Shown here piece by piece: positions 351 through 32,658 of a DNA stretch of 64,000 nucleotides. The notes beneath the pieces were generated by a model. It was given only the letters and a program-made list of their open reading frames with translations, was not told where the DNA came from and ran no database searches. The DNA comes from Eubacterium sp. GTDB taxonomy: Bacteria; Bacillota; Clostridia; Lachnospirales; Lachnospiraceae. The stretch is from positions 1 to 64,000 of the forward strand of contig JAFUVQ010000019.1 in the NCBI GenBank assembly GCA_017477505.1, given 5' to 3'. A program made the position numbers and the translations under genes. The first letter of the stretch is position 1. Each line of letters opens with the position of its first letter.

Positions 351-385
351 TTGTTGCGCTTTTGTTGTTTCTTAGGGGTTATACT
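351..385 (+). promoter_or_regulatory. Shared-motif promoter, copy A
   Basis: TTGTTGCGCTTTTGTTG at 351-367 is followed by exactly 12 nt and then TATACT (380-385). The start codon served is at 424, with GAGGG as ribosome site. The same arrangement recurs at 11549, 24304 and 32624. TTGTTG repeats with an 11-bp period, which resembles OmpR/PhoB-family binding sites. No TTGACA-like -35 is present at the normal distance from the -10. Confidence 0.7.
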
Positions 386-423
386 GTCTCATAACATATT
401 AGTTTAGGTTTAGAGGGTTTGTT

Positions 424-3400
424 ATGCGAATTGCAGAATTAGCTAAAAAATTCATAGTGACGACAGTAGCAGCCGCAATGGTGCTGGGATATACGCCGCT
501 GGCAAAGTCAGTGGATTCTTTTGCTGCGGGTGAAACCGCAACCGGTACAGATGCCCTGGGAGCAGGCGCAACGGTTGAGGAAAAGACATATTCTGTTACT
601 GCGGACAGTACTGTACCGGCATACACGGCGTATAAGAATATGGCAACATGGAGAGATCGTAAGTCGTATAAGGCTCCCGAGAATACTTATGATATAACGA
701 TTGCGACGGGTGCCACATCCGGCGAAAAGGTTCTTTATCTTGCAATTAAGTATAAAGATAAGGATAAAGTTTCCAGAACTCAGTTTATATTCCCGGCTCT
801 GGATGCTACCAAGAGATGTTCTGCGCTTCTTAAGTATTATTCTGATAAGGGAAATGCGGTAACAAGATCATTTGGAAAGCAGATTGCTGAGGAATTAAAC
901 TATACTACTGCAGATCCGAGCGATAAGCCGCTTGAGACCTGGACAGTACAGGATTATGCATTCCAGACAGAAGCACCGATATATACTCTTGAGGGTATAG
1001 ATATATACCTTGAGAGCGGAACATGGAACTGTCGTGGACTTGCTCTTTATAAGGTTGATGAGTATAAGGGCTACGAAGAGTATGGCATGATCAGCGGAGA
1101 GACCTTCCTTGATTTTAAGGGTACTCTTGTTGCCGAGGCTTCCATGACTATGGAAAAGACTCTTTCCGGCAGCGGTCAGGATAAAGTCTTCAGAGTTGGT
1201 GGAGAACATGGCGCTAAGGAATTCAAGGTTATAAACTACCTTGATAAGCAGAACCCTCCTGCAAGAAATTATTCAGGTCAGGATCAGCTTTATTCCTTCA
1301 GATTTGATTTTGCAGATGTATATGAAGGCGGTATTGAAGCCTTCATGAATCCGTCCGCCAAAACCGTTAAGGATTATAAGGGAATAGTTGAGGATATGTC
1401 CCTTCAGATACAGTATCTTGATACACATGGCTGGACAAGAAAAGTCACATTGCCGATTGTCCTGAGTTCTTATGGGCAGGTACTCCGGGCTGTACCTAAT
1501 AGTACAATATTTGGTTTCGCACAGCGTGGTGAGACCATAGCTTTCCAGGGAATTCTTCCTGAATTCAGCCAGTTTGTCGGAACTCCTGTTCTGGCAATAG
1601 GTGATACAGCCAGAAATACTCTTGGTGATAATGTTAAATGCAAGAGCTATACGGGCACTATGTCCTCGAATCTGTCAGATACCAGGAATGATAGGATAAA
1701 TCTTGCAGGTGTATCATTCTATAAGGGTGGTTGTATGCCTTATATCCGTGACGGAGTAGACAGTGACGGAGTTGCTCTCAGCGGAGCAAATATTGAATAT
1801 GTTTTTGAAGGGTCACCTATACAGTATTATACGACCACTCAGGGCGAAGGCAGACAGATACCGTCCGGTGCGTCCACTAAGATTGAGATGTCTCAGTTTG
1901 GACCTAACAGTACTCTGATAGCAGAGTCTTCTGTAATGTCAACCCAGTATCTTATTACACTTGATACAAGTCTGATAGGTAATGTGGGTTCTGACAGCGA
2001 CTTTACAGTACAGTTCCATTATAAGGATTTTGACGGAAAGGCAAATGTTACCCCGAGATATAAGGTTAAAGATTCTGCCAATAACTTTATGGGTCAGTGG
2101 CAGACTACATCGGGAGCTAATTTTATAGAGAAATCCGGTCTGGTTGCTGGTGGATCCATATCTTTCCTTGTTGATGCTGATAACGTTCTGGACTTCACGG
2201 GTGTTGAACTTGATATGGGTGGCGACAGCTGGACTATGAAGAATCTGACAATTTCCTATGTTCAGAGCTACCAGAAGAGACGTGCATACAGGAAGGATGT
2301 TGAATCAGCAGGAGCACATTCGAATTTCTGGGTTGAAAGATCCATGATATCCGCTCCTATATTTACACTTGTCGGTTCCAGCGCCAAAATCACCGATTCA
2401 GATGGTTATTCGGTAGATACAAGCGGAGAGAGAAAGAAAGAAGTCAGATATAAGACCGATCCGGAAACCGGCGAGATTATATATGATCCCGTTACCAAAG
2501 AGCCGATAATGGAAGATGTTCCTCAGGATGAGAGAAAAGACGACGGGGTTATTATCTCAACTGACGTTACATTTAAGAATGACGAAATATATAAAATTGA
2601 ATTCAGTGATGATTCTGATATAGATATAAGATCCCTGGAGTACTCAGACGTAAGATACAAGATGAGTTATGAGCAGACTCAGGTCAACTGGGGATTCTTC
2701 AAGAAGAGAAAGACTTATAATGTAGCAGTTTCTGTTTCAAAGGATTCTCTATACGATACAGGAAACGGAGATTCCGGTTCAAAAAACCATTTCTATTTCC
2801 AGCTTATTTTTAAGAACGGAAACAGCGGTTACGTTATGGCTAACCAGCAGATAACCAGCGATGGTTTCAGATCCGGTTACACTGAAACATTTACCATTTC
2901 GACAAATCAGAATTACGGCGAGTTGAAGGGTATAAGGATTATCCCAGAAGACGTCACCTCAGATTCCGAGCCATTCGATAAGCTCCAGGTAGACAGGGTA
3001 ACTGTATCAGAGCATAATAATGGTGGATGTTATATATCATGGATTATAGATAATATCGGCTGGATAGAGATTGACTATTCTGACGAGCTCGAAAGTGTTA
3101 CACCTAGAGGTCAGAGAGCCAGATCAGCAGCTGAATTATCCAAGCTGTATAAGGTTTCTTATAAAGAAAAGGATGTTAAGCTTGCATGTGAGATAAGCTG
3201 TGAACCTTGGATAGGAGAATTTGATCAGTTCATAGGTACCATGAGAATGGAGGTAACTTATACCTCATCTAAAGATGATAAGCAGTATGCACAGACATTT
3301 GACGCAGTTCAGTGTATGGCTGATTATATGAAAGTAAATGTCAAATCTGTTGAGACTGAAACCGATCCAAGTAAACAGATAGTCGCGGCGGAGGGACTCG

Positions 3401-5922
3401 GAACGGTATCCGATTCGAAGTGGATGTTCCGACCGTACCATACGGACAGACTGATGCTTCCGGCTATTCCGGACCTTAAGTCTATAGACAGCATATCATT
3501 CTATGGACAGAATCTGGGTGAGCATGCAGCTAAGTGGATCATAAAGAATATCAGTATTCTCCAGGTTGTTGAGGATGGGGCAGTTCAGCTGACCGCAAGT
3601 AATGAGCTCTATAGAAATATGAGCTACAGAAGAGTATGTAACAATACCAATGACGGTACACTCGAAGCATCATTTGCCATTGGTGGTGAGGGCGCTATAG
3701 AGGATATCCCACTTTCAAAGAATGAGATAATCTGGAATGCAGATGATTCATGGGCTACACCTGTAACAAGGCTTCCGGATTCTACTGATGACGAGCTGAA
3801 TATTTATGTTTATCCTGTTGCAGGTACAACAAAGGGTAATCAGGCAGATGTCAACATTTCACTTAAGTATGATATACCATTCTCACAGTACAAGATGGTT
3901 TCATCCAAGAGGCTTACACTTACAACTGATGCCAGGGGCAGAGAAGTATATGTAGCCAAGAATATTCCGGCAGCTGATTTTATAAGCACGAAGGAATTTA
4001 TAGTATATTGTGTAAGTAATAATGTGGCCTTTGATCACGCTCTGATCCAGCATTTAAGAGAAGGCACGGTCATGGGTAACTATACATATAACCTTTTAGG
4101 CGCTACTGCTGTAAGAGGTGCGAGTGGCTTCATTTCAACAGATCAGGGCAGCTATGACCTTACTGAAGAGAAGATAACCATCGGACTGGGTGCAGGAACC
4201 AAGGAGAAGATCCTTCAGTCTGAAAATACAGATATAGCGGTATCATTTATCTATACATCAACGCTGGATGATATTGATACGAAATATTATTCACCATATG
4301 TATATATAACCGACCAGGGTTATAAGAAAACAGCAGAGGGAACCTTCATAGAGCTGGAATATGATGTTCCGTTCGTAAAAGAGATAGTGGGCTACAACAT
4401 AGCAGGTTATGGAACCATTGAAGCACTGGTAACAGGCATGGCATCCGCTGTTTATGATGTTGCACCTGAAGACAGGCAGCTGAATGTGGCATCAGGTAAG
4501 ATGCAGACTATGAAGAGGACCAAGAGCAGCTTTGCCTGCAACAATGAAACATTTGCACTTACAGACAGGCTTTCATCCAAGGGTGTTACATCCAAGGAAC
4601 CATATGGAAAGAACAGCGTGACACCGGTTGAGCTTACATTTGATACAGTAGGTTCAAGTGCTACCAAGGAAAGCAAGACAAGATCTTCAGTTAAGTTTGT
4701 CTGCCACTATATTGATTCTGAAGGAAATAAGAGAGATGACCTTATCTTTGAGGATATTACATCTTATATTCAGAATGATACGCAGCAGTTCTATAAGGAT
4801 CAGTCTCAGACAGTTAAGTTCTTCGCACCTCAGATGGGTGAGGATCTGATCATTAACAGTATTGACGTTGTGCCATACAATACCAATATTGATACAGATG
4901 TAAATGTTGCGGATACGATTGCGGATAACAAAGATGATAAACCGTTGGATCAGACACTTGCTGAAGAGACAGGTGACGGAAATACTGCTAATACAACAAG
5001 TCCTGAGACAGTGGATCTTGCTGATAAGATTATAGACAGCAGGGCTGCTTATTGGGAAGTATCAGATGCACACTGTGATTTCGGTTTTGGAGCAAATACA
5101 TTTGATGCTCATATAAATAAGAAGTTTGACGGACTTGACAACGGTGGAGTCATGAGACTTCTTGATGTAACAATACGTACTACATATGCGAAGAATAATG
5201 AGCAGGCACAGACTGTTCAGGATCATAATGCACAGGTACTTGCTGAATCTGAAGATAAGATTCAGGGAACCGTCATACTTGGACCTCCTAAGGTAAAGGG
5301 CTTTACTGTTAAGGCTTATGAGTTGATAGGAGATGCCGAGAAGGACGTTAGCGAGGATACAGTAAAGATTGAGGATATGTATTATACATTCTCGATTCCA
5401 AAGTATACTGTTCCGAACGGTACCCAGGGTGAAGTCAAGAAGTATAAGCTGGAGATTTATCCAAATGATGCTCCGGACCTTATCGATACAATACTTGTAA
5501 ATGTTGCTCCGAAGGAGATAGCTGTTAAACTTACAACCAATGTGTCAGTAAATAATCTTACAGGCACAACCGTTCAGAACAATCTGGCTCAGATATTCGC
5601 TTCACAGGGAGATAAGGTACTTGGTACTGTACTTGTCGAAGGTTCGGATAAGGGCTATGATGTCAAGGTTTACAAGGTTGGAGACGGCGCAGATAACCCT
5701 GATACAGAGGTCACGGCTGCAACAACAACCAAGGATTCATATAACTTTACATTTAATGTACCTGCCGACGGTGCTGAAACCAATACACTTTATAGAATAG
5801 TAGTATCAAGTGTTGAAGAACCGAGCGTTAAGGATACAATAATGGTAACCGTTGCCGGTGTTACTCCGGCTTCTACACCTACACCGCCGGCACCGGGTGG
5901 CGGTGGAGGTACTACACCATAA
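424..5922 (+). CDS. Very large exported protein, function unknown
   Basis: An 1832-residue protein with a clear N-terminal signal peptide: positive start, hydrophobic residues about 9-24, and likely cleavage near SFA-AG around residue 36. The body is rich in Tyr, Asp, Ser and Thr and reads as beta-strand-rich extracellular domains. A motif of the form Ile-x-Ile/Phe ... Trp ... Asn-Ile/Leu-x-Ile recurs near residues 192, 590 and 1020, suggesting repeated beta-sandwich modules. Near the C terminus two related blocks of about 95 residues both carry TVQ-(D/N)-x-x-AQ ... DK-x-x-GTV ... VK-x-Y. The protein ends in a Thr/Pro then Gly-rich tail with no LPxTG or membrane anchor, so it is probably secreted or loosely wall-bound. 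The next gene starts 13 nt downstream and encodes a membrane-anchored protein, probably a partner. I recognise no named family. Confidence 0.75.
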   Translation: MRIAELAKKFIVTTVAAAMVLGYTPLAKSVDSFAAGETATGTDALGAGATVEEKTYSVTADSTVPAYTAYKNMATWRDRKSYKAPENTYDITIATGATSGEKVLYLAIKYKDKDKVSRTQFIFPALDATKRCSALLKYYSDKGNAVTRSFGKQIAEELNYTTADPSDKPLETWTVQDYAFQTEAPIYTLEGIDIYLESGTWNCRGLALYKVDEYKGYEEYGMISGETFLDFKGTLVAEASMTMEKTLSGSGQDKVFRVGGEHGAKEFKVINYLDKQNPPARNYSGQDQLYSFRFDFADVYEGGIEAFMNPSAKTVKDYKGIVEDMSLQIQYLDTHGWTRKVTLPIVLSSYGQVLRAVPNSTIFGFAQRGETIAFQGILPEFSQFVGTPVLAIGDTARNTLGDNVKCKSYTGTMSSNLSDTRNDRINLAGVSFYKGGCMPYIRDGVDSDGVALSGANIEYVFEGSPIQYYTTTQGEGRQIPSGASTKIEMSQFGPNSTLIAESSVMSTQYLITLDTSLIGNVGSDSDFTVQFHYKDFDGKANVTPRYKVKDSANNFMGQWQTTSGANFIEKSGLVAGGSISFLVDADNVLDFTGVELDMGGDSWTMKNLTISYVQSYQKRRAYRKDVESAGAHSNFWVERSMISAPIFTLVGSSAKITDSDGYSVDTSGERKKEVRYKTDPETGEIIYDPVTKEPIMEDVPQDERKDDGVIISTDVTFKNDEIYKIEFSDDSDIDIRSLEYSDVRYKMSYEQTQVNWGFFKKRKTYNVAVSVSKDSLYDTGNGDSGSKNHFYFQLIFKNGNSGYVMANQQITSDGFRSGYTETFTISTNQNYGELKGIRIIPEDVTSDSEPFDKLQVDRVTVSEHNNGGCYISWIIDNIGWIEIDYSDELESVTPRGQRARSAAELSKLYKVSYKEKDVKLACEISCEPWIGEFDQFIGTMRMEVTYTSSKDDKQYAQTFDAVQCMADYMKVNVKSVETETDPSKQIVAAEGLGTVSDSKWMFRPYHTDRLMLPAIPDLKSIDSISFYGQNLGEHAAKWIIKNISILQVVEDGAVQLTASNELYRNMSYRRVCNNTNDGTLEASFAIGGEGAIEDIPLSKNEIIWNADDSWATPVTRLPDSTDDELNIYVYPVAGTTKGNQADVNISLKYDIPFSQYKMVSSKRLTLTTDARGREVYVAKNIPAADFISTKEFIVYCVSNNVAFDHALIQHLREGTVMGNYTYNLLGATAVRGASGFISTDQGSYDLTEEKITIGLGAGTKEKILQSENTDIAVSFIYTSTLDDIDTKYYSPYVYITDQGYKKTAEGTFIELEYDVPFVKEIVGYNIAGYGTIEALVTGMASAVYDVAPEDRQLNVASGKMQTMKRTKSSFACNNETFALTDRLSSKGVTSKEPYGKNSVTPVELTFDTVGSSATKESKTRSSVKFVCHYIDSEGNKRDDLIFEDITSYIQNDTQQFYKDQSQTVKFFAPQMGEDLIINSIDVVPYNTNIDTDVNVADTIADNKDDKPLDQTLAEETGDGNTANTTSPETVDLADKIIDSRAAYWEVSDAHCDFGFGANTFDAHINKKFDGLDNGGVMRLLDVTIRTTYAKNNEQAQTVQDHNAQVLAESEDKIQGTVILGPPKVKGFTVKAYELIGDAEKDVSEDTVKIEDMYYTFSIPKYTVPNGTQGEVKKYKLEIYPNDAPDLIDTILVNVAPKEIAVKLTTNVSVNNLTGTTVQNNLAQIFASQGDKVLGTVLVEGSDKGYDVKVYKVGDGADNPDTEVTAATTTKDSYNFTFNVPADGAETNTLYRIVVSSVEEPSVKDTIMVTVAGVTPASTPTPPAPGGGGGTTP

Positions 5923-5935
5923 GGAAGGCTGACTG

Positions 5936-6703
5936 ATGAAGAAGAGATATTTTATAATAGCGATAGCAGTATTACTTGTGATACTTGGAGTGCTTGTATA
6001 TATAGGTATTGCGGGGTCATCATCGAATACAGATCTTTTTGCACAGTCTGATTATCCGGTAAAATATTCCCTTAAAAAGGGCAATATGGTAGTTAAGCTT
6101 GACGGGCACCGCTCCAGGGATCTTAAGTGGTCATTTGATATAACTGATGATACCAAGGTAGCGGTTGCCCAGAGCGGCTTCGAATTTAACGGCAAGGCTA
6201 AGTATATAATTACTCCTAAAGAGGAAGGTCTTACCAGGGTGCGTTTTTTCCGAACCAGAAATATTGCCGGATCTGATATAAATGTTGCCGAAATCCATAT
6301 GCCTATATTTGTGACAAATACAAACGGAGTACTGAATGTAACATTTCTTTCCGATCCGTATCTGGTGGATGCACCGCTTATAATAGGAGAATCTACTGCA
6401 AATCCTGTGTTTATTGAGGATAATGAAGAAGGATCCAGTGTTATCAGATTCGCTAACGGACAGGGTGACTGGGTCGTAGAGAATCCGGATAATGTATTGA
6501 GCATTAATATTTCCGCTGATGGAAACAGAACTATAGCAACTCTTACAAAGATTGAGAATGCAGGTGCTGATGGGGTTGATGTTCATAATACAAGTATAGT
6601 TCTGTCAAGTGCGTCTCTTGAAGTCAGAGAGGAACTGGCTGTTACATTTGAAAATGATGGAACAGTTACGGTAAAGAGGGCTAAGACTTCTACGAAGAAA
6701 TAG
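5936..6703 (+). CDS. Membrane-anchored extracytoplasmic protein, paralogue of 11635
   Basis: A 255-residue protein with one N-terminal transmembrane helix (about residues 5-27) and an extracytoplasmic remainder. It is a clear paralogue of the product at 11635-12588. Both have a positive-inside helix, then a (S/T)DYPV-x-Y motif, a (K/S)-x-F/Y-I-(V/I)-(S/T)-PK segment, and an (N/A)G-(K/Q)GDW-(T/V)-VE motif about two thirds along. The start is supported by AAGGAAGG 7 nt upstream and lies 13 nt after the giant exported protein, so the two are co-transcribed. Its pairing with an exported protein, repeated at the 11635/12606 pair, suggests an anchoring or assembly role; this is inference only. No known family is recognised. 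Confidence 0.65.
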   Translation: MKKRYFIIAIAVLLVILGVLVYIGIAGSSSNTDLFAQSDYPVKYSLKKGNMVVKLDGHRSRDLKWSFDITDDTKVAVAQSGFEFNGKAKYIITPKEEGLTRVRFFRTRNIAGSDINVAEIHMPIFVTNTNGVLNVTFLSDPYLVDAPLIIGESTANPVFIEDNEEGSSVIRFANGQGDWVVENPDNVLSINISADGNRTIATLTKIENAGADGVDVHNTSIVLSSASLEVREELAVTFENDGTVTVKRAKTSTKK

Positions 6704-6719: not shown

Positions 6720-7427
6720 TTGTTAACAAAGAAGAGTAAGAAAAATCCTCTGCTTATGGAAGCAAGAAAAGTACTTCTTAATCAGGTTACACTCGGTAAA
6801 AATGATCACCTCGTAACGGTAAATGAATTCAGATTCCAGTTATGGGGAGCAGCCGATGGCGAGGGAAGTCTCAGAACCTGGGGAGTTTCACACAGGGAGT
6901 ACAAATATAAGCATAATTCAAAGCTGTCCAATAAGCAGGTAATATTTAAGGTCGCGAAGCGTTTCGGCAATATGGGAAGAGTTATTGATTTCCAGAGTGA
7001 TCCGGATGCGGTTGGCTGCCTTGTAAGGACATATATATTTTATCCTGTGGTGCTGGCTTTTCATGAGAAAGATGGGGAACTGGAGCTTGCGGCGTTTACT
7101 CCAAGATGTCTTGTTTCCGGTTTGACGAACTGGATCGTGGCGAGAAAATTCGAAAAGTCCATGGATGACATGATAGAACGAGACAGAGAAGGTGAGTCGA
7201 CCTTTAAGGAAGGACTCAGACTAAGAGCTGAAGAAGCTGAAGAGAGACGTAAGGAAAAGAAAGAAGCAAAGCTAAAAAAGAAAGAAGCTGCAAAGGCTCT
7301 TAGAGCCGGAAAGGCTTCTGCTATAAAGAACGAAAAAACGGAAGAGGATGATTATTCCGATATTCTGGAAGAGTTCAAAAAAGTCAGTGATGATTTGGCT
7401 GAAGATGAGACTGATGAAAATGAGTAA
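6720..7427 (+). CDS. Conserved-looking cytosolic protein of unknown function, TTG start
   Basis: A 235-residue protein with no signal peptide. Residues 1-150 look globular, with aromatic-rich strands (for example NEFRFQLWGAADGEG). Residues 155-215 form a highly charged Lys/Glu/Arg/Ala helix, and the tail is acidic. The start is TTG at 6720, supported by GAGG at 6708-6711 with 8 nt spacing. The next in-frame ATG, at codon 13, lacks a comparable site. It lies 16 nt after the membrane-anchored protein and 17 nt before the HATPase gene, so it belongs to the same transcription unit and may work with the anti-sigma-like kinase. I do not recognise the family. Confidence 0.6.
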   Translation: MLTKKSKKNPLLMEARKVLLNQVTLGKNDHLVTVNEFRFQLWGAADGEGSLRTWGVSHREYKYKHNSKLSNKQVIFKVAKRFGNMGRVIDFQSDPDAVGCLVRTYIFYPVVLAFHEKDGELELAAFTPRCLVSGLTNWIVARKFEKSMDDMIERDREGESTFKEGLRLRAEEAEERRKEKKEAKLKKKEAAKALRAGKASAIKNEKTEEDDYSDILEEFKKVSDDLAEDETDENE

Positions 7428-7444
7428 GGTCGGAGGTATTGTTT

Positions 7445-7942
7445 ATGGCGGAATTTGAAGAATTCCTAAATCTGGGCAGTATTGGGGGTACTGACGAGGA
7501 TGAGATAGAGTGTTCTTACAGTGATGATGGAAGGGTTATTACCATAGATGCTGTTGATGGCTCTATAGACATAGTCCAGGATTTTATAAATGATAAGCTA
7601 TTTCAATTTGGCTGTGATCATAAAGCGATGAGTGAGATAAGGCTGGCTGTAGAAGAGATAATGGTCAATATCATTTCGTATGCTTATAGACCTGGTGTCG
7701 GAAAGGCTGAGGTTGTCTGCGAAGTGACTCAGTCTCCCCTTACAGTTATAATTCAGTTCATGGATTCGGGAAAGCCTTTTGATCCGCTTGCTCAGGGGGA
7801 TGCAGATACTTCGGGAAAGCAGTTTATCGAGAGAGCCGGTGGTTTTGGTATTCATCTCGTAAAGAATACTATGGACGATGTTGAATATGAATATAAACTT
7901 GGAAAAAACATTCTTTCCATTAGGAAGAAACTGGAATCCTGA
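7445..7942 (+). CDS. RsbW/SpoIIAB-like HATPase (anti-sigma-type serine kinase)
   Basis: A 165-residue GHKL ATPase of the HATPase_c_2 group. The N box is seen in EEIMVNIISYAY, the G1 box in MDSGKPFDP and the G2 region in GGFGIHLVKNTMD. Family members bind ATP, phosphorylate a STAS antagonist and sequester a sigma factor or other target. I chose ATG 7445 because GGAGG at 7432-7436 sits 8 nt upstream. An in-frame TTG at 7439 would leave only 2 nt. The STAS protein at 39-341 is the likely substrate. No sigma factor or PP2C phosphatase is visible in this window, so the regulated target is unknown. A strong hairpin follows the stop codon. Confidence 0.88.
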   Translation: MAEFEEFLNLGSIGGTDEDEIECSYSDDGRVITIDAVDGSIDIVQDFINDKLFQFGCDHKAMSEIRLAVEEIMVNIISYAYRPGVGKAEVVCEVTQSPLTVIIQFMDSGKPFDPLAQGDADTSGKQFIERAGGFGIHLVKNTMDDVEYEYKLGKNILSIRKKLES

Positions 7943-11548: not shown

Positions 11549-11583
11549 GTGTTGCTCTTTTGTTATACTCTTGGTGTTAATAT
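11549..11583 (+). promoter_or_regulatory. Shared-motif promoter, copy D
   Basis: GTGTTGCTCTTTTGTTA at 11549-11565, then exactly 12 nt, then TAATAT at 11578-11583. This is the most divergent of four copies but keeps the spacing exactly. It precedes the gene at 11635, and the run of genes to 24268 is probably transcribed from it. Confidence 0.6.
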
Positions 11584-12588: not shown

Positions 12589-12605
12589 TTCAGGGAGAAA
12601 TGAAA

Positions 12606-24273: not shown

Positions 24274-24305
24274 AAAATGGGATCAGTGTGTCTGGTCCCA
24301 TTTTT
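24274..24305 (+). terminator. Rho-independent terminator
   Basis: AAAATGGGA with its complement TCCCATTTT forms a stem of about 12 bp with a 7-nt loop and a run of T. Its T run merges into the shared-motif promoter that begins at 24304. Confidence 0.8.
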
Positions 24306-24338
24306 GTTGCACTTTTGTTGCGTTTTATCATGTATTAT
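24304..24338 (+). promoter_or_regulatory. Shared-motif promoter, copy B
   Basis: TTGTTGCACTTTTGTTG at 24304-24320, 12 nt, then TATTAT at 24333-24338. It precedes the gene at 24411 by about 70 nt and starts inside the T tract of the preceding terminator. Confidence 0.7.
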
Positions 24339-24410: not shown

Positions 24411-27400
24411 ATGAAGGAAAATGATTATAGCCGTGAGGAAGGCCAGGACATTCTTGATCAACAGGATGAAGAAATAAGAAAAGCCAATAATCAGCTAAAT
24501 GAAATCAGAAAAAAGAATAAGAAAAATGTCAAGGGGCAAAAGCAAACCAGACAGGAGCGTGACAAAAAAAGACTGCGTATAAGGGAAGAGACTAAGAAGA
24601 AGAATGCTGATGGCCGTGCGAGACGCGAAAAAAACAGGCAGGAGATTCGCAAGAAGTACGAGGATAAAAAGAAAGCCAAAGAGAATCAGCTTAACAATCT
24701 TTTCTCTGAGTTTCTGGATGATGAAAATGATCTTGATAATATCATCGCTCCGGGACAGAATGACCAGTATGTATTCAATCAGGAAGAATGGGATATTGTT
24801 GATGAGGCTCCGGTAGATGAAGCTGCTGAACAGCGCAGGCGTGAAGCTGAACAAAAGGCCTGGGAAGAAGAAGAGAAGCAATTAAGGGCAGAGGCTGATC
24901 AGCTTGTGAAAGATTACCAGCAGGAAGAACAGCGACGTCAGCAGGAAGAAGAGCGACGTCAGCAGGAAGAACAACACCACCAGCAGGAAGAACAACAGCG
25001 TCAGCAGGGAAGAGACGAATATGAGTGGCACCTGAATACGTTTCGTGCTGATGCAAACGAAGGTTTCAGGAGCATCACAAAAGTCTATGGCCCTGATGGC
25101 AGGCTGCCCCGTGGATTGGGCTATGAACATCCTGAAGAATATGATGATATTCAATTGGAGGTTCCGGAGGGATTCAGTAAAGAACTGATTGCGGCCATCG
25201 TTATAGGCGCAGCTATGGATAGAAGCAGGCTGAATGAGAATCTTTCAGAACCTGTAACAGATGCTGATCCGATCAATGATAACAGGAAGCATTTTCTGAA
25301 CAGCATACTTAAAGGTGATCCCAATGATAAGAATTTTGTTCCTATCATGATACTGGCTAAGAAGGAAGCGGCTCAGGCTATTAAAGAATATAAAGAAAAC
25401 GGAACTGACAAATCCATCAAGAGATATCTTCGGAATTTTGCAGATTATGCTGCCGGGAATTCCTCAGAGTTAGATGCTTCAAAAGGTATAGATACGGAGG
25501 AAATCACTACATCGCAGTTAGGGCAGATGTTTTGCCAGAAGTATGTTATTGATGGTAAATTCAAAGTTGAGCCGAATACTCATGATACAACTAAGATTCA
25601 GAAACTGAGACTGAGTTCATACTCAAAACAGATGGATAGTCTTATGAGTGCCCAGTCATCCAAGTTGAAACTGGTAAATGAAGCGGCTACACTGTCAGTT
25701 CAGCAAAAAGAAGCCCTGGCTGAGGAGATGATCCTTAATTCATTTATTTCAAATATAGCAACAAAAAGCAGGAAGGATATTCCGCAGAAAGTAGCCGACA
25801 ATCAGAAGCAGGCTTTCAGAAATATAGGAATAGATGAGACAAGCCCTGATTGGAATGGGACAGCCCTTAAGCAGGATGGAAAGACCGCACTCCAGGCAAA
25901 AAAGGCGGCTAACGCCTATAGCAGGAATCAGATAACTGAATTTGAGGCTCTTACGGGCGCTCCTACCGGAATTAATGTTATTAAGGGGAAATATCGCGAT
26001 GCGATAAAGAATTCAGACTTATACAGAAATGTAGTAAATGCAAACTCAAAAAATGCAATGCTTGATGCACTTATGGCTGTTGAGAAGGAGTCAGCAAAGG
26101 GATTCAAGGAGGTATTTCCTGATATAGAAGTTACCGGATATTCAGTTGCCTTGAATAATGGCAGAAAGGAAAAACTCAGTGAAGAGCTTAAGGAAGTAAG
26201 AAAGGCTACGGTTGATGCATCCTTATCAGAAGAACTCACATACAATGTGAATACATATGGATTATTATCACTTAATCCCCAGTCTGTTACGAATAATGCC
26301 CGGATGATAGAGGAAATCTATCAGACGGTTAAGAGTAATAATTATCGTGGCGGTTCTCCGAATTATGACGACATGAAGAATAAACTTGAGGAACTGAGGA
26401 ATTATACACGGGATCTTGCCAGGTATAATGACACCATAGGTTCCAGGGACGCAAAAAAATATCAGAAGCTTGTGAAAGAGTTTGATGATCTGTCAGAAAA
26501 GTATCTTACGGAAAAGACTACAGTAAGTGGTTCCTATGCCCGTAACAGAGTGGCAGGAGTGAAGAATGCCAGACTTAAGATTTTGGCAAGCATGCCTAAT
26601 ATAGACCATGCAGTCAAGACAATGCAGGAGGATAAGCTTGAAGAGGTCATAGGAGATAAGTTTAAAAATTTTGATGATTTCAGTTCGGAAAATCAGAAAA
26701 ATACATATTACGGAAATAAATACAGGTCAGTTCACTCGAGAACTATACCATTTGGCGCTAAAAAATATACCCTGGGAAGAACGGCCGGTATATCCGTAGC
26801 AATGCTTGCCCTTGCGGCAACCGGTGAATATACTCTTGAGGATCTCATGGATCCCGAAAAGAAAAAGAATGAAAAGGCTGAAATGTTTGATAAAGTGGCT
26901 ACCGCCATGAAGAACAGCAATAGGCCTGAAAACCAGAAGTGGATAGCTGAGCAGATATATAAGGGACAGAAAGCCACCGATAAGATATTTAACGAAGAAA
27001 TGAAATATGTGGATTTCAGCAACCCGGATGTCCTGAAGGATAAAAAGATGGGAATGCTATGTAATCTCTATGAAGCAAGATTTGATGCTGAGCAGGAACT
27101 GACAAGAGAATGTTCCGATGAATATATAGCTATTGCCCGGAAAGAAAATCCAAATATAAGGACAAAGGCAGATATAAAAGTTGTCGAGTCTCCGTTGACC
27201 GATATTTCCAAGACAATTAATACTATGAAAACTTATGCCGTTAAGGCGGTTACAGAGAAGAATCCGGATGTTTTGAAGGATGCTGTGGCAAATCTTATGG
27301 CTTGTCGTCCAAAGATTGATGCATACCTTAAGTTAATGAATGATACCCGTGAGGAAAAGGGAGACAATCCGGTTAATGAGTGGTTTCCTGAGGGTACGTC

Positions 27401-28049
27401 GGATGAATTCAAATTAAAAGTTGACGGAATGGCTAAAGCTATAACGGATACAGGTGAATATCTTGGTAAGGATCCGAAGATGATCAAGAACCTGATGCCG
27501 AAGCTTATTGATGGCAGTTATATGAAGAATGTCAAGGTTGAACCGGCACCGGAGATAGGAGCGGCCAGGATTACTTCAGGTTTCCCGACTGAGACACGTA
27601 TGAAGATGGATTCCGCTAATATGGTATTTCTCAAGAATACGGATGCTGCACTTCAGCGTCTTAAGACACAGCATTACACAAACAAGAAGGATTTTGTAAT
27701 GGATTCGGCATATGCCATATTCGGGCAGATGTATCGTGCGGCCGGTGGAAGAATGCCGTTAGATGCGAAAACCGGAAAAGAAATAACTCTTGATAAGTAT
27801 ATGGAGATTCAGCTGAAAAACGGTATATTTGAAAAGTCTCTCAAATCAAAGAAAAACCCGAAAGAGTTTACCAGACCGGTAGATGTCGCAGCTTATGCAG
27901 AAAATCACGAGAAGATGGGGAGATTGATTCAGAAGAATATAAACGCTGCACTTGATAAAAAGGGAATCAAGAATAATAATAATACTGTTGTTCGTTCTAA
28001 TACAACCAGGACGGTCAGCAGTGGAAATACAAGTATTACCCAACTATAA
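24411..28049 (+). CDS. Large helical protein with N-terminal coiled coil
   Basis: A 1212-residue protein with no signal peptide. Residues 1-100 are a Lys/Arg/Glu-rich helix, about 100-145 are acidic, and 140-210 are Gln/Glu/Arg coiled coil (repeats of QQEE). The body to residue 1180 is helical. Near residue 805, ATGEYTLEDLMDPEK followed by a charged helix resembles a block I associate from memory with large uncharacterised Lachnospiraceae proteins. A weakly similar GASTMLTGEYDLQ occurs in the product at 14814. The C-terminal tail has VVRSNTTRTVSSGN, like the RSNT-type tails of 9854 and 19935. AAGGAGGTA gives a strong ribosome site. It is transcribed from the shared-motif promoter at 24304 and followed 15 nt later by the gene at 28065. 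Function is unknown. Confidence 0.64.
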   Translation: MKENDYSREEGQDILDQQDEEIRKANNQLNEIRKKNKKNVKGQKQTRQERDKKRLRIREETKKKNADGRARREKNRQEIRKKYEDKKKAKENQLNNLFSEFLDDENDLDNIIAPGQNDQYVFNQEEWDIVDEAPVDEAAEQRRREAEQKAWEEEEKQLRAEADQLVKDYQQEEQRRQQEEERRQQEEQHHQQEEQQRQQGRDEYEWHLNTFRADANEGFRSITKVYGPDGRLPRGLGYEHPEEYDDIQLEVPEGFSKELIAAIVIGAAMDRSRLNENLSEPVTDADPINDNRKHFLNSILKGDPNDKNFVPIMILAKKEAAQAIKEYKENGTDKSIKRYLRNFADYAAGNSSELDASKGIDTEEITTSQLGQMFCQKYVIDGKFKVEPNTHDTTKIQKLRLSSYSKQMDSLMSAQSSKLKLVNEAATLSVQQKEALAEEMILNSFISNIATKSRKDIPQKVADNQKQAFRNIGIDETSPDWNGTALKQDGKTALQAKKAANAYSRNQITEFEALTGAPTGINVIKGKYRDAIKNSDLYRNVVNANSKNAMLDALMAVEKESAKGFKEVFPDIEVTGYSVALNNGRKEKLSEELKEVRKATVDASLSEELTYNVNTYGLLSLNPQSVTNNARMIEEIYQTVKSNNYRGGSPNYDDMKNKLEELRNYTRDLARYNDTIGSRDAKKYQKLVKEFDDLSEKYLTEKTTVSGSYARNRVAGVKNARLKILASMPNIDHAVKTMQEDKLEEVIGDKFKNFDDFSSENQKNTYYGNKYRSVHSRTIPFGAKKYTLGRTAGISVAMLALAATGEYTLEDLMDPEKKKNEKAEMFDKVATAMKNSNRPENQKWIAEQIYKGQKATDKIFNEEMKYVDFSNPDVLKDKKMGMLCNLYEARFDAEQELTRECSDEYIAIARKENPNIRTKADIKVVESPLTDISKTINTMKTYAVKAVTEKNPDVLKDAVANLMACRPKIDAYLKLMNDTREEKGDNPVNEWFPEGTSDEFKLKVDGMAKAITDTGEYLGKDPKMIKNLMPKLIDGSYMKNVKVEPAPEIGAARITSGFPTETRMKMDSANMVFLKNTDAALQRLKTQHYTNKKDFVMDSAYAIFGQMYRAAGGRMPLDAKTGKEITLDKYMEIQLKNGIFEKSLKSKKNPKEFTRPVDVAAYAENHEKMGRLIQKNINAALDKKGIKNNNNTVVRSNTTRTVSSGNTSITQL

Positions 28050-28064
28050 GGAGGAAAAGGGGCA

Positions 28065-30974
28065 ATGAAAGAGAATGATATATTAGAAGTTAATGAAGAT
28101 TTTAGAGATGAATTTGTTGATCTGGGAAAAGCAGAGGGCTTTTCAGAGCCTGCGTCACAGATGGATATTATGACTTTTGCCAATAGCCTTGCAGTAATCG
28201 ACATGACATTTGGAGACGATATGAAAGCTCTCAAAGAGCATCAGGAAGGATTACTTGGATTGGCATATCAATTATATGAAGCTTATTCCAAAAGGGAAGA
28301 TCATAATATTGATCAGAGAACACCTTTTACTAAAAATGATATGAAACCGGTTAATAAAGAGGTAAAAAAATTAACGGATTTTATAGATAAGCATATAAAG
28401 GAAGACAAGTATCCACCTTCTTCTTATATGCATAGAACCAAGGTTGCTTATAGAAAGCATATGGAGATGGTGTTAAATGGGGATTTTAAGAAGATAAAAG
28501 AATTCTCAGGTTCAGACGCTGAATTGTATCATGCCTCTTTGAATGAATATCCCCAGCCACGATTTATGGATGATCCAAAAGGTGATTACAAGAATGATGT
28601 TGCCAGGTATGAGGCATATATGAAACAACATCCTTTCCTGGAGCAGTTTGAGGAAAAGTATCGCTATTATGAGGAAAACCTTCTTCCACATATAAAGGAT
28701 AAAGAGAGGGGACTTTTAAATAAGGATAAAGAAAAAGAGTTTAAAAAGGCTACCTATGACCATCTTCTTAAGATGCAGGGCTACTTTTCCGAATTGAAGA
28801 AAATAAACAATGATCCGGAAACCGGTAAGGTGGGACCTTTTGCCCAAAAACGCAGCCAGGATCAATGGATTAACGGCAGAACCGGCGGGGCTGCTGAAAA
28901 AACAATAAACAGAGAGCTTGATGCGCTGCGCCATGGATGGGCTCCGGATGATTTTAAGATGATCCATCAGCTTGATACACTCATGGAACATCTTGAAAGT
29001 GGACATAAGAAGAAAACACTGACCGATCAGGAATATGAGAAGGCAAGTATCCTGTATCAGACATTTAATAATACTTACATAACAAATAAAGAAGAAAGAA
29101 AGCAGGCACTGGATAGCCTCAAGCCTGTCTACGATCTTTTGCCTAAGGTTAAAAACCCGGCGTTCGGTTTTGAACCCGCTGAATGTAAGGCACTCTATAA
29201 TACTCAGAAGAAGGCTGATGTTTCTGTAGTTTTACTTGATCGCGGGGATCGTCTCCGTAGTGACATGATAAAGAATCTTGAGAGATTCTATAAGGGACTT
29301 TCGACGGGACACCGTGTGGGAACCCATACGGATAAGGGCGAAATGAGAGAACTGAAGGATAAAACTCTGGAAGTTATTGATATGCTCAGATCTGACAGAA
29401 GAGATATCTATACGACTCCGGAGTTCCAGGAGGCATTCCGCCAGCTTAAAGTGAAGTCTGATAATTATACAAAAGCCAAAAGAGCAAAGTTTGAGCGTGA
29501 GGTAAATGAATCTATAGATGAGAACCTTCAGCAATCAAATCCGGCTGAGTACAGAAGGTTAAAGAAAGCGGCAGCTAAAAGGATTGAGGAATGGCGTCCA
29601 ACTACCAGAATGGGTGAAACCAGATACAATACAGCTCTTGAGATGAATAAACTTTGCGCACAATATGAGCAAAGCCTTAAGGAGGAAAAGAATCCGGCAC
29701 AGCTTGAAAGTGAGAAGAATATCAGGGAGGCAGGACATAATATCATTCATATGGATGATATCACTTTTAACGGCACAAAGCCATATGATCAATACGTATC
29801 CCTGATGATGAATTTTTACGGGAAGAATCCTGCATATATACCTGAATTATCAACCGGGACTAAAAAGGCAGTTAAGACTGAAGAGTTTTTGGAAAAATGT
29901 CCTCCTGTAGTCTGTGATGGAGTTTCTGATAATGATTTTGCGGTTGTTGCATTTAATGCTGCATACAATGTTGATATGTTCGATGAGCAGCAGATATTAG
30001 AGCATTGGCCGATCAAGTCAAATGAAAACAGTTATAAGGATATGCTTCGTCGCAATAGAACAATGTATACAAATGATATCGGACAGTTTCTGCCTCGAGA
30101 TAACTCTATAAACCATCATGCTGAAATATTAATAAATCCTGCCAGAAATAAGGCGAAGGACGCCTTTGAAGCATATAAAAAAGGTGATAAGGAACCGTTG
30201 GCCAAAATTCTTGCAAACGGAATTAAGGAACTGACCTATGATATAATCCGTGTTGACAAAATTGAATCCAAGGATGGAGACTTTGCCAAATCAACGGAGA
30301 TGCTTTCCAAAAGTATGGAATTTGCCAGAAAGGATCCGGAGCTTTTCAGGAAAGTAGAGAATCAGATCGGTGAAGCTAATATGGAACATGTTAAGGATAT
30401 GCTTCGTCTCAAAGGAATGTTTGACAAAAGCATCGAGTCCGAAAGAAAACTTGAGCTTGCGGCAGAGAACAAAAAACCGCTTACCAAGAAAGAGAAGCAG
30501 GAGTGTATAGATAATATAGCTATGTATGACTGGGTTTCAGCTGTACATGAAAAGTTGAGACGAACGCAGTACGATATGAGCCAGGAATGTAAAAATGTTG
30601 ATAAAGAACTTGAAGAGCAGCTTCCGCTTATCTTTACGGGACAAAGAAAAGATATTACCGAAAATGATCTTCAGGCTAAGGATTTTAAAGTTAAAGCCAG
30701 AGTAGCAACCTCCATTCCGATGATCACAACAAATATCAGAACTCCTAAGGGATTTAATGCGCTTAAGAATCTTTCACGTCAATTGACCAAAGATATCTCA
30801 GCCGGCATGTCTGAGGCAGAGATACTTAAAGCAACCAAGAAACTCCATCAATCCAGAAAAGATGCTATTAACAAGAAATACTCTGAAGCGGCAGAAAAGA
30901 AGAGAGCACAGAACAAGAGAGAGATGGAACAAAGTAGAAAGAATAATGCTCCAAAATCAAAAGGCGGCATTTAA
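28065..30974 (+). CDS. Large helical protein, function unknown
   Basis: A 969-residue, mostly alpha-helical, highly charged protein without signal peptide or membrane helix. It carries several conserved-looking aromatic stretches (for example NEYPQPRFMDDPKGDYKND near residue 160 and KKAAAKRIEEWRPTTRMGE near 500). The last 60 residues are Lys/Arg/Gln-rich and end KNNAPKSKGGI. AGGAGG sits before the ATG, 15 nt downstream of the 24411 gene, and a strong terminator follows, so the two form one unit. It shares its general build with the other large cluster proteins, and co-regulation suggests a common process. No catalytic motif is visible to me and I do not recognise a family. Confidence 0.62.
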   Translation: MKENDILEVNEDFRDEFVDLGKAEGFSEPASQMDIMTFANSLAVIDMTFGDDMKALKEHQEGLLGLAYQLYEAYSKREDHNIDQRTPFTKNDMKPVNKEVKKLTDFIDKHIKEDKYPPSSYMHRTKVAYRKHMEMVLNGDFKKIKEFSGSDAELYHASLNEYPQPRFMDDPKGDYKNDVARYEAYMKQHPFLEQFEEKYRYYEENLLPHIKDKERGLLNKDKEKEFKKATYDHLLKMQGYFSELKKINNDPETGKVGPFAQKRSQDQWINGRTGGAAEKTINRELDALRHGWAPDDFKMIHQLDTLMEHLESGHKKKTLTDQEYEKASILYQTFNNTYITNKEERKQALDSLKPVYDLLPKVKNPAFGFEPAECKALYNTQKKADVSVVLLDRGDRLRSDMIKNLERFYKGLSTGHRVGTHTDKGEMRELKDKTLEVIDMLRSDRRDIYTTPEFQEAFRQLKVKSDNYTKAKRAKFEREVNESIDENLQQSNPAEYRRLKKAAAKRIEEWRPTTRMGETRYNTALEMNKLCAQYEQSLKEEKNPAQLESEKNIREAGHNIIHMDDITFNGTKPYDQYVSLMMNFYGKNPAYIPELSTGTKKAVKTEEFLEKCPPVVCDGVSDNDFAVVAFNAAYNVDMFDEQQILEHWPIKSNENSYKDMLRRNRTMYTNDIGQFLPRDNSINHHAEILINPARNKAKDAFEAYKKGDKEPLAKILANGIKELTYDIIRVDKIESKDGDFAKSTEMLSKSMEFARKDPELFRKVENQIGEANMEHVKDMLRLKGMFDKSIESERKLELAAENKKPLTKKEKQECIDNIAMYDWVSAVHEKLRRTQYDMSQECKNVDKELEEQLPLIFTGQRKDITENDLQAKDFKVKARVATSIPMITTNIRTPKGFNALKNLSRQLTKDISAGMSEAEILKATKKLHQSRKDAINKKYSEAAEKKRAQNKREMEQSRKNNAPKSKGGI

Positions 30975-30984
30975 TATGGAAAGA

Positions 30985-31025
30985 GGGCATGGATTTGCTG
31001 ATGCAAATCCATGCCCTGAATTTTT
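30985..31025 (+). terminator. Strong Rho-independent terminator
   Basis: GGGCATGGATTTGC and its exact complement form a 14-bp stem with a TGAT loop (30985-31016), followed by TGAATTTTTA. It closes the 24411-28065 unit. The convergent gene ending at 31056 could also use it in the opposite direction. Confidence 0.88.
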
Positions 31026-31055
31026 ATAGACCTGCGGCAGAACTCTGTGTATTGC

Positions 31056-32576
31056 TTACATTATTCCAAATACGTAGCTGACCGTTAGCATGACTGCGAT
31101 AAAAAGAATCATCAGTATTATATTTTTAATATGTTTTTTCCTCTCGGCATTGAGGTTGGCAATGAATTCTCTGATAAGCGCGTTACTGTAGAAGTACCAT
31201 TTGGTCGGAGCTCCTACGCCGGAAACTCTTATGCCCTGGGAATATGCGATGTGACCGCTTCGAAAGACATGATAATTTGTGGTTGAGAAGGCTAGATTTG
31301 TTGGTGTATTCTTGTCCGTGGAATCATTTGGAACAGTATTGATTCCTTGTTCAGCTTCGAATTTCTGTATGACCTCATATGAAAATTTCATATTCTCCCG
31401 GGTGTTTGTGGACTTATCCTCAAGGAGAATCCTGTCTTCGGGGATGCCGCGGCTAAGAAGGTAATTCTTTATGGACTGTGCTTCTGAAATTATCTCGTCG
31501 TCACCTTTTCCGCCGGAGGCAACGTAGTAGATGTCTTTGCCGCTGCTTTCTTTTTGCTGTTCGGCAAAACGGATGGCCCTGTCAGCCCGGCCTTTAAGAA
31601 GCGGGGTTGCGGTTCCGTCTTTAAGCATCGCGCAGCCGAGTATGATGATGTAGTCTTTGTTAAATGTAGGTATATGATTCTGTGCAACCTTCGTACAGAT
31701 ATAGGTTCCGGTCATCAGACATTCCAGATAAGTCAGTACAGCATAGATGGAATACTCAATGAAGAAAGTTATATGCATTCCTTCGTAAGAGTGAACATCA
31801 AATACATTGTCCAGAATGTCATATGTGTGATATCCCGTGATCGTCATTGCTACAAGGAACACCCCCAGCAGTATACCGAGCATGTTGGTGATACTACGTC
31901 CTTCATGCCTGATAAGCGAAATGTTACTGATGATAAGATATACAGCTAGAATGAAGATCAGAGGAAAGACCAGCATTGAAAAGGTTGTAAATACTCCTAT
32001 AATTTCCGAATAAAGCGAGAACAGCTGGGATTGCCAGTAACGCCGGGTTACAAAAAGACCGAAAAGCCATATGAGGAGGTTGAGACTGAGGAAGACGGCT
32101 ATGCCCACGTAATACATGAAACGATATGAATACATGGTGTCGCGGACAGTCTTCCATATCATTGCAATTATGTTGATCAGCATGATCGCTACAAGGATGG
32201 GAATCTCAATCCTGATGATGTCAATATGGTCTATGGTTCCGATAAATTCATTTTCATATATAAGAAACAGGCGGGAGATATTAAAAGTATTGCTGCAGAC
32301 CGGATTGTCAGCATTTTTTAATTCTACTGTCAGGGTTACATCGCCGCTTTTTTTTGCTTTTAGATCTATTCTGGTATAATCATCTTTTTTATTATAAGTG
32401 ATGCGGGTTATGTCAACCAATTCCGGATGATCGATTTTGATGGCAGAGATTTCATTTGATTTTAGTTCTCCGAATACAATCCATGAATGTCTGCCTCTTA
32501 TGAGAAAAATATTCAGTATAGTAAATGCGGCAAGCAGGACTAATATAATGCCGAATCTAATCAAGTATTTTTTCAT
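31056..32576 (-). CDS. Multi-pass membrane protein with DUF218 (SanA/YdcF-like) domain
   Basis: A 506-residue protein. Residues 1-30 form a first membrane helix. Residues 30-120 look like a small outside domain, about 125-290 contain several membrane segments, and a final helix lies near the C terminus. Between about residues 300 and 450 is a DUF218/YdcF-like domain: YIIILGCAMLKDGTATPLLKGRADRAI, then ASGGKG, SEAQ, LEDKSTNTREN and a late TTNYHVFRSG. These match the family's conserved acidic and His/Arg positions. Family members such as SanA and ElyC are linked to envelope integrity, but the biochemical reaction is poorly defined. The start ATG has CAGGAAA upstream. It is transcribed leftward, convergent with the cluster. 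Confidence 0.85.
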   Translation of the reverse strand: MKKYLIRFGIILVLLAAFTILNIFLIRGRHSWIVFGELKSNEISAIKIDHPELVDITRITYNKKDDYTRIDLKAKKSGDVTLTVELKNADNPVCSNTFNISRLFLIYENEFIGTIDHIDIIRIEIPILVAIMLINIIAMIWKTVRDTMYSYRFMYYVGIAVFLSLNLLIWLFGLFVTRRYWQSQLFSLYSEIIGVFTTFSMLVFPLIFILAVYLIISNISLIRHEGRSITNMLGILLGVFLVAMTITGYHTYDILDNVFDVHSYEGMHITFFIEYSIYAVLTYLECLMTGTYICTKVAQNHIPTFNKDYIIILGCAMLKDGTATPLLKGRADRAIRFAEQQKESSGKDIYYVASGGKGDDEIISEAQSIKNYLLSRGIPEDRILLEDKSTNTRENMKFSYEVIQKFEAEQGINTVPNDSTDKNTPTNLAFSTTNYHVFRSGHIAYSQGIRVSGVGAPTKWYFYSNALIREFIANLNAERKKHIKNIILMILFIAVMLTVSYVFGIM

Positions 32577-32623
32577 TTTAAATTTCCTGAAATTTTATAA
32601 TTTTTTTGAAAAAAACCGTATTT

Positions 32624-32658
32624 TTGTTACGCTTTTGTTGCTATCTATGGATTATAAT
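32624..32658 (+). promoter_or_regulatory. Shared-motif promoter, copy C
   Basis: TTGTTACGCTTTTGTTG at 32624-32640, 12 nt, then the consensus TATAAT at 32653-32658. The served start codon is at 32725. This copy lies outside the main cluster, so its gene may belong to the same regulon. Confidence 0.72.

What the first reader, a model, noticed from the sequence alone, without database searches (positions are those of the whole stretch)
351..32658. Four promoters with an identical unusual architecture define a candidate regulon
At 351, 11549, 24304 and 32624 a 17-bp element (TTGTTR-C-N-C-TTTTGTTR; position 1 is G in copy D) is followed by exactly 12 nt and then a -10-like hexamer (TATACT, TAATAT, TATTAT, TATAAT). 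In copies A-C the element contains TTGTTG-like half-sites 11 bp apart, as in OmpR/PhoB-family boxes; copy D is more divergent. No normal -35 is present. The element heads the three transcription units of the unknown cluster and one solitary membrane-protein gene outside it. I saw no clear further copy in the window. This ties 424, 11635, 24411 and 32725 with their operons to one regulator.
Basis: seen in the sequence. Interest (0 to 1): 0.82.

Follow-up and report, generated by a model that had tools for sequence, protein, structure and literature searches.

The report
Shared promoter switch for secretion effectors
Four matching promoters in this stretch belong to a genome-wide set that appears to switch on, together, a cell-to-cell secretion machine and about fifteen to twenty large proteins it probably exports, in a bacterial genus with rumen members, a group where such protein delivery has hardly been documented.

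Summary
The element is two 11-bp direct repeats ahead of a -10 with no -35. The genome holds 24 copies (reversed control 0); 22 of 25 near-perfect boxes have a -10 at exactly 12 nt. One copy heads a type IV secretion (T4SS) operon on another contig. In relatives the window's first gene (STAS) directly follows VirB4, so the "unknown cluster" is the downstream part of the T4SS locus. Fifteen of the 24 copies serve large genes without signal peptide. In all 14 such products of at least 400 aa that could be tested, the last 50 residues are basic (+5 to +11; background 2 of 39), as in many T4SS substrates. A response-regulator gene sits beside the T4SS; close orthologues occur in 8 of 19 genus genomes, all with 5 or more boxes (one other genome has 8 boxes without it). 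Best reading: a two-component regulon co-expressing a T4SS with its effectors, like the Legionella PmrA regulon but in a Gram-positive. Regulation and export are inferred, not shown.

The parts
351..367 (+). box A (two 11-bp direct repeats, second partly conserved)
380..385 (+). -10 of promoter A (TATACT), 12 nt after box A
11549..11565 (+). box B (G at position 1)
11578..11583 (+). -10 of promoter B (TAATAT)
24304..24320 (+). box C
24333..24338 (+). -10 of promoter C (TATTAT)
32624..32640 (+). box D (perfect match)
32653..32658 (+). -10 of promoter D (TATAAT)
39..341 (+). STAS-domain protein; orthologue (73-85% identity) of the gene that directly follows VirB4 in relatives, so the likely 3' end of the T4SS operon
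424..5922 (+). giant protein with a PLAT domain (1832 aa, apparent signal peptide by eye and hydrophobicity), served by box A; homologues behind a box after VirB4-STAS in G002, G003, G008, G014
5936..6703 (+). protein with an N-terminal membrane anchor by eye, same gene run
6720..7427 (+). protein of unknown function, same gene run (TTG start as listed)
7439..7942 (+). HATPase_c_2, RsbW-like by family (TTG start as listed); with the STAS gene, part of a partner-switching set (a SpoIIE phosphatase is present in the similar G009 locus)
8082..9749 (+). soluble protein with a basic C-terminus (+7); a homologue in G009 (33% identity) has its own box
9854..11485 (+). soluble protein with a basic C-terminus (+8); a homologue in G002 (27% identity) has its own box
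11635..12588 (+). protein with an N-terminal membrane anchor by eye, first gene after box B
12600..14747 (+). apparently secreted protein (715 aa); homologues lie at or near the RR/T4SS locus in several relatives
14814..19916 (+). candidate effector, 1700 aa, basic C-terminus (+5)
19935..23702 (+). candidate effector, 1255 aa, basic C-terminus (+6)
23717..24268 (+). GNAT acetyltransferase, same gene run; 65% identical homologue in the similar G014 locus
24411..28049 (+). candidate effector, 1212 aa, served by box C (+5); stretches shared with other box-served proteins
28065..30974 (+). candidate effector, 969 aa, same gene run (+11); homologous to the box-served L083 protein
32725..33333 (+). 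202-aa membrane protein (by eye) served by box D; no homologue in the loci fetched up to other than itself

Best explanation
The element is a class-II-type activator site: two 11-bp direct repeats (TTGTTGCGCTT-TTGTTRYnCTT) that replace the -35 and end about 7 nt before an often extended -10. The likely activator is the response regulator (receiver plus OmpR-type winged helix plus a short C-terminal extension) encoded with a sensor kinase (PF06580) directly upstream of a box-driven T4SS operon. On the sensor's signal it would switch on three things together: the T4SS (pilin, VirD4, VirB6-like, VirB4), large surface proteins, and about 15-20 large cytosolic proteins with basic C-termini that the T4SS then exports as effectors. 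Shown here: the box, its fixed spacing, the gene set, the link to the T4SS locus, the co-occurrence, the C-terminal charge bias. Inferred: binding by this regulator, transcription, export, target cell.
For: 24 genomic sites, reversed control 0; spacing 12 in 22 of 25 boxes. One site heads a T4SS-pilin/VirD4 operon right after response-regulator, membrane-protein and kinase genes; the same order is seen in G002, G003, G008, G009 and G014, with an extra gene between pilin and VirD4 in G002 and G003. RR orthologues at 67% identity or more (8 of 19 genus genomes) are in the 8 genomes with 5-32 boxes; of the 11 without, only G012 has more than 2 (Fisher p=1.2e-4, no correction for relatedness). The RR profile aligns over receiver and winged helix with full-length regulators such as 1p2f, 1kgs and 1ys6 (most other hits are receiver only). 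In four loci whose regulator is only 33-41% identical, the regulator gene lies within about 105 bp of such a box (L103, L118, L131, L183). Basic tails: 14 of 14 box-served soluble proteins of 400 aa or more versus 2 of 39 (MWU p=2.4e-8). A kinase-like family is in 7 of 7 genus genomes with the VirD4, otherwise only as broken remains in G016. Relaxase and integrase are far from the T4SS in the single-contig G002. Pfam in 31 candidates: ABC1 (8e-15) and Ntox11 (8e-21) in one each; weak PI3/PI4-kinase, APH and Fam20C matches in two each; kinase-family profile hits FAM20A in the PDB at E=1.6e-5.
Against: No expression, binding or translocation data. VirB4 was not found in the window's own assembly (only a 26% match) and the gene after VirD4 stops early, about 135 bp before that contig's end, so this strain's system could be interrupted. 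Four of 24 sites serve ordinary-looking genes. One kinase-family member in G000 (C44) and one in G003 (C311) show no box. G012 has 8 sites but no close RR (70% complete). C-terminal basicity is a weak predictor on its own: precision 10% in a Legionella benchmark (table passage of PMC6448907). In a second set of box-served soluble proteins only 12 of 20 have C-terminal charge of +4 or more, and one of my 14 (L086) ends in what looks like repeat sequence. Mycoplasma ICEs, whose VirB4 is the best NCBIfam model, are recalled to lack a classical relaxase, so absence of one is weak evidence. Pfam BTAD was not hit.
Confidence: 0.6

Rival explanations
1. The regulon is real, but the large proteins are not T4SS substrates: they are intracellular proteins (stress, filament or signalling) co-induced with a conjugation-like or competence-like T4SS.
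For: No export data; at least 16 of 31 candidates have no Pfam match even at E 0.05; the T4SS proteins resemble conjugation families (conju_CD1115, Mbov_0395/0397); basicity alone predicts poorly.
Against: Basic C-termini in 14 of 14 against 2 of 39 background; the kinase-like family co-occurs with the T4SS and is missing from G005, which keeps regulator, kinase and pilin but shows no VirD4 or VirB4; toxin-like and kinase domains.
Confidence: 0.25
2. The T4SS kills neighbouring bacteria: the large proteins are antibacterial toxins.
For: One box-served protein in a relative (L163) appears to carry Ntox11, a polymorphic-toxin domain.
Against: Of 18 box-served or cluster genes examined, 7 have the next gene on the opposite strand and only 5 (2 outside the window cluster) have a same-strand gene within 60 bp that could be an immunity gene; ORFs under 60 aa were not considered. 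Kinase domains of the Fam20/PI3K type suggest eukaryotic targets, but do not prove them.
Confidence: 0.15
3. A different regulator (another paralogous response regulator or an AraC-type protein) binds the box; the linked regulator only serves its own operon.
For: Several of these genomes hold many paralogues of this regulator at 31-42% identity; G012, G015, G016 and G018 have 8, 1, 2 and 2 sites without a close orthologue.
Against: Presence of the orthologue tracks with 5 or more sites; distant members of the family adjoin such boxes.
Confidence: 0.2
4. A mobile element spreads the box: the sites are ends of a repeat, not a regulatory element.
For: Many near-identical copies.
Against: Outside the box, the base before it, the TG and the -10, the flanks carry almost no information; in G000 the sites lie before different genes.
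Confidence: 0.02

Closest known systems
Legionella/Coxiella PmrA regulon of Dot/Icm effectors
   Same: A response regulator with a shared promoter site co-expresses a T4SS and many effector genes scattered over the genome (PmrA as regulator of icm/dot and effectors: seen in passages and a reference title of PMC6448907; box details recalled).
   Different: Gram-positive host, different T4SS lineage (nearest NCBIfam models are Gram-positive or mycoplasma conjugation proteins), no recognised Legionella-type effector, different sensor kinase type, box with a different sequence.
Streptococcus suis 89K island T4SS
   Same: Gram-positive T4SS with evidence of protein secretion (PMC12857230 section 22, read).
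   Different: There one secreted protease is reported; here a genome-wide set of large proteins without signal peptides shares one promoter type. No sequence comparison was made.
PhoB/OmpR and SARP-type activated promoters
   Same: 11-bp direct repeats replacing the -35 at fixed distance from the -10; regulator with an OmpR-type winged helix.
   Different: Pfam BTAD not detected; box sequence is its own; about 55-residue C-terminal extension of unknown role. The SARP and PhoB spacing rules are recalled, not tested.
Gram-positive ICE conjugation systems (CD1115-type VirD4; Mbov_0395/0397 mycoplasma ICE)
   Same: VirD4 and pilin score over NCBIfam cut-offs; VirB4 close to it (533.9 against 590).
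   Different: No PF03432 relaxase or PF00589 integrase near the locus in single-contig G002; tied to a chromosome-wide regulon; other VirD4 genes, some a few kb from a relaxase, exist in the same genomes.

Membership tests
OmpR/PhoB-type (class II) activated promoter | direct repeats with an 11-bp period | tested here: met
   TTGTT at positions 1 and 12; second repeat weaker after position 18
OmpR/PhoB-type (class II) activated promoter | box takes the place of the -35 at fixed distance from a -10 | tested here: met
   22 of 25 at N12; 4-6 mismatches to TTGACA in 25 of 25; a few members of the kinase-like family in relatives have N13
OmpR/PhoB-type (class II) activated promoter | bound by a phosphorylated response regulator | not testable with these tools
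   only linkage and co-occurrence
SARP regulators | OmpR-type winged helix plus BTAD | tested here: inconclusive
   winged helix aligns; Pfam finds only Response_reg up to E 0.05
Gram-positive T4SS | VirD4, VirB4, VirB6-like and pilin in one operon | tested here: met
   in G009, and by homology in other relatives; VirB6 called by size, place and hydrophobicity only; in the window's own genome pilin and VirD4 were found but VirB4 was not
Gram-positive T4SS | VirB1-, VirB3- and VirB8-like parts | not tested
   not searched
Conjugative element (ICE) | relaxase beside the T4SS | tested here: not met
   PF03432 nearest is about 370 kb away in G002; PF02486 absent in 7 of 7 genomes; other relaxase families not searched
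Conjugative element (ICE) | integrase beside the T4SS | tested here: not met
   PF00589 nearest about 206 kb away in G002; other recombinases not searched
Effector-delivering T4SS | translocated protein substrates dependent on VirD4 | not testable with these tools
   no experiment
Effector-delivering T4SS | candidate substrates with a C-terminal charge bias and co-regulation with the machine | tested here: met
   14 of 14 against 2 of 39; shared promoter; second set 12 of 20

The most novel reading that the evidence does not exclude
Lachnospiraceae of the rumen run a dedicated T4SS without a linked relaxase, under a two-component regulon, that injects tens of large, modular effectors, among them Fam20/PI3K-like and ABC1-like kinases, into eukaryotic cells of the rumen (ciliates, fungi or gut lining): the first multi-effector T4SS of a Gram-positive commensal.
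Probability: 0.35. Interest if true: 0.92.

Novelty: new variant of a known kind. Interest (0 to 1): 0.78.

Why it matters
A 2025 review (PMC12857230, section 22) calls whether Gram-positive T4SSs evolved as dedicated effector translocators a long-standing question, with S. suis as the first case. This regulon gives a promoter sequence that lists candidate effectors genome by genome and a candidate regulator to delete. It also gives a context to an otherwise unknown 30-kb cluster.

Tried and rejected
Sigma-factor regulon: the STAS/HATPase genes suggested a partner-switching sigma factor, but the -10 is sigma-70-like and the upstream element is an 11-bp repeat, so an activator fits better (inference). 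Repeat or mobile-element origin of the box: flanks not conserved. ICE: no PF03432 or PF02486 relaxase and no PF00589 integrase near the T4SS in G002. Contexts of paralogous regulators: most of those stretches show no box, not informative. PDB sequence searches with a VirB6-like protein, two candidate effectors and the Ntox11-bearing protein gave no hit. ABC1 as a phyletic marker failed because the family is in 31 of 31 genomes. Ntox11 is in 1 of 31 genomes. I first took a 1961-aa box-served ORF of G005 for a homologue of the giant PLAT protein; the comparison shows no similarity. Structure prediction could not be run. Literature searches (open-licence PMC only, no preprints) listed no paper whose title or abstract start describes such a regulon; only parts of two papers were read.
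Full report
OBSERVATION. The four elements are in the sequence as described, each with exactly 12 nt to a -10-like hexamer. One detail is swapped: the G at position 1 belongs to the copy at 11549, while the copy at 32624 is a perfect match. The pattern with a -10 has no match in 100 shuffles of the window, and the three other loose matches in the window (up to 3 mismatches) are what chance gives.

GENOME-WIDE. The window is the start of contig C52 of a 3.22-Mb, 76-contig genome, G000. The full pattern with up to 2 mismatches has 24 sites there and the reversed pattern has 0. Of 25 boxes with up to 1 mismatch, 22 have a TATAAT-like hexamer at spacing 12; other spacings from 4 to 25 give 0-8, and no -35 is present. 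A logo of 150 sites from many genomes shows two 11-bp repeats, the second weaker after position 18, an often extended -10 (TG), and almost no information in the flanks apart from a T just before the box. That collection is biased towards a perfect -10 because the scan required TATAAT.

GENES SERVED. Of the 24 sites in G000, 15 serve large genes without signal peptide (657 to 2402 codons; one runs off its contig), one a T4SS pilin followed by a VirD4-like coupling protein, and one the giant PLAT protein in the window. Two serve membrane proteins (B and D) and one a 281-aa protein with a basic tail. Four precede ordinary-looking genes: NUDIX, Maf (with a poor -10), GNAT, and a 188-aa lipoprotein-like protein. 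Starts were taken from longest ORFs or ribosome-site logic, not from annotation; signal peptides were judged by hydrophobicity and eye.

THE T4SS LOCUS. On contig C18 of the same genome lie, in order: response regulator, membrane protein, PF06580 kinase, box, pilin, VirD4 and an apparently secreted protein. In G009 the operon continues with a VirB6-like membrane protein, a VirB4 ATPase and a STAS gene. In G002, G003, G008 and G014 the same order is followed by a second box and a homologue of the giant protein. The window begins with the orthologue of that STAS gene (73-85% identity), followed by box A and the giant protein, so the window cluster is the downstream part of the T4SS locus. VirB4 at 65% identity or more is in G002, G003, G008, G009, G011 (in pieces) and G014 but not in the held assembly of the window's genome. 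The gene after VirD4 there stops early, close to the contig end. The missing genes may lie in an assembly gap, or the locus may be interrupted in this strain; I cannot tell.

REGULATOR. The regulator's profile aligns over receiver and winged helix to full-length regulators of known structure (1p2f, 1kgs, 1ys6; that these are OmpR-family is recalled). Orthologues at 67-80% identity, plus the window genome's own, make 8 of 19 genus genomes. These eight have 5 to 32 box sites with up to 1 mismatch; of the eleven others, seven have none, three have 1-2, and G012 (70% complete) has 8. Of the 12 genomes of other families, one has a single site. Fisher p is 1.2e-4 without correction for relatedness. 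Among 93 stretches found by the scan of the species-genome collection, 16 hold a member of the regulator family reaching into the winged helix: ten at 68-76% identity and six at 33-41%. Among the six, in L103, L118, L131 and L183 the regulator gene lies within about 105 bp of the box. Whether those genomes have a T4SS was not tested.

SUBSTRATES. In G000, box-served proteins of at least 400 aa without a hydrophobic N-terminus number 14 that could be tested; ORFs running off a contig (such as L081) and nine background proteins of the window cluster were left out. All 14 have net charge +5 to +11 in the last 50 residues, against 2 of 39 background proteins at +5 or more (MWU p=2.4e-8); one of them, L086, ends in what looks like repeat sequence. 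Six large soluble window proteins (8082, 9854, 14814, 19935, 24411, 28065) have +5 to +11 as well (the one at 24411 is also among the 14). In a second set from loci, 12 of 20 complete soluble proteins of at least 300 aa have +4 or more, two of them near-identical. The other eight are L166 and L180 (SpoIIE-like), L113 twice, L138, L140 (masked), L171 (family of window 8082, +1) and L186 (kinase family, +3). C-terminal basicity alone is a poor predictor, with 10% precision in a Legionella benchmark. Candidates share stretches, often near the C-terminus. A kinase-like family with NxDRxxxN and GIDND motifs, matching FAM20A at E=1.6e-5, is found in all 7 genus genomes with the VirD4, as broken remains in G016, and in no other of the 31 genomes. 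It is absent from G005, which keeps regulator, kinase (65%) and pilin (59%) but shows no VirD4 or VirB4. Of 17 family genes of at least 600 aa examined in relatives and one further contig of G000, 12 show a clear box by weight matrix, two of them at spacing 13 and two with 3 mismatches. A 13th has a box listed inside the extended start of its longest ORF, one is weak, two lack it and one starts off its contig. The two further members in G000 (C32, C66) have boxes.

CONJUGATION? In the single-contig genome G002 the nearest PF03432 relaxase is about 370 kb and the nearest PF00589 integrase about 206 kb from the T4SS, and Rep_trans is absent in 7 of 7 genomes. The genomes also hold other VirD4 genes, some a few kb from a relaxase. 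So this T4SS does not look like a conjugative element, though ICEs without a classical relaxase exist (recalled).

TARGET. Not determined. Of 18 candidate genes, 13 lack a same-strand gene of 60 aa or more within 60 bp downstream that could be an immunity gene, which fits eukaryotic targets; the Ntox11 domain in one relative fits bacterial ones.

LITERATURE. From PMC12857230 I read passages and all of section 22. It calls dedicated effector translocation by Gram-positive T4SSs a long-standing question, with S. suis 89K as the first case. From PMC6448907 I read passages only. Other papers were seen as listings only.

VERDICT. The regulon is real (about 0.95). The linked regulator is the likely activator (about 0.75). 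The large proteins are likely T4SS effectors (about 0.6). Kind: a new variant of the known response-regulator/T4SS-effector arrangement, in an unexpected group.

Noticed in passing
L100, L110, L119, L151, L182, L181, L169: The same box with N12 and TATAAT precedes small genes that look like Nif11-type or GG-motif peptide precursors (names recalled, by eye, not searched); record titles for the ones shown include Ruminococcus sp. The box family may also run peptide production elsewhere.
   Followed up: no
window 39-341 and 7439-7942; L217:5848-7509: STAS, HATPase_c_2 and (in G009) SpoIIE phosphatase genes sit inside the T4SS locus, a partner-switching set; no sigma factor was looked for. Possible post-translational switch of the machine.
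   Followed up: partly
L241 (G005:C1:1430000-1446000): G005 keeps regulator, kinase (65%) and pilin (59%) with box, but no VirD4 or VirB4 match, and has only 5 boxes: apparently a decayed version of the locus. A 1961-aa box-served ORF there is not similar to the window's giant protein.
   Followed up: partly
L215 (G028): A related T4SS (VirD4 60%, VirB4 53% identical, the latter match with two stop codons) in another family of the order shows neither the box (up to 1 mismatch) nor a close regulator.
   Followed up: partly
G000:C18 end (L219): The gene after VirD4 stops early, about 135 bp before the contig end; assembly break or insertion.
   Followed up: partly
window 12600-14747; L148:4685-6853; L098:5338-7500: Homologous apparently secreted proteins of about 700 aa end in VPEY at the very C-terminus; L107's homologue does not. 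Meaning unknown.
   Followed up: partly
box-served genes: Many candidate effectors start MKE or MP followed by charged residues; could be shared ancestry of the 5' ends or a signal. Not tested properly.
   Followed up: no
L093:6512 and L097:3547: A GNAT-family protein keeps the box in two genomes (46% identical proteins), so it is probably a true regulon member.
   Followed up: no
The regulator family is expanded, with many paralogues at 31-42% identity in several of these genomes; their own sites are unknown.
   Followed up: partly
L168 (Poseidonibacter): One exact box-N12-TATAAT match lies in an unrelated genome; probably chance, given 257 billion bases searched.
   Followed up: no
window 33471-62211: The rest of the window looks ordinary: LRR protein, malic enzyme, MoxR/DUF58/transglutaminase set, citrate synthase, DnaX, RecR, PFK, YceG, FHA protein.
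   Followed up: no
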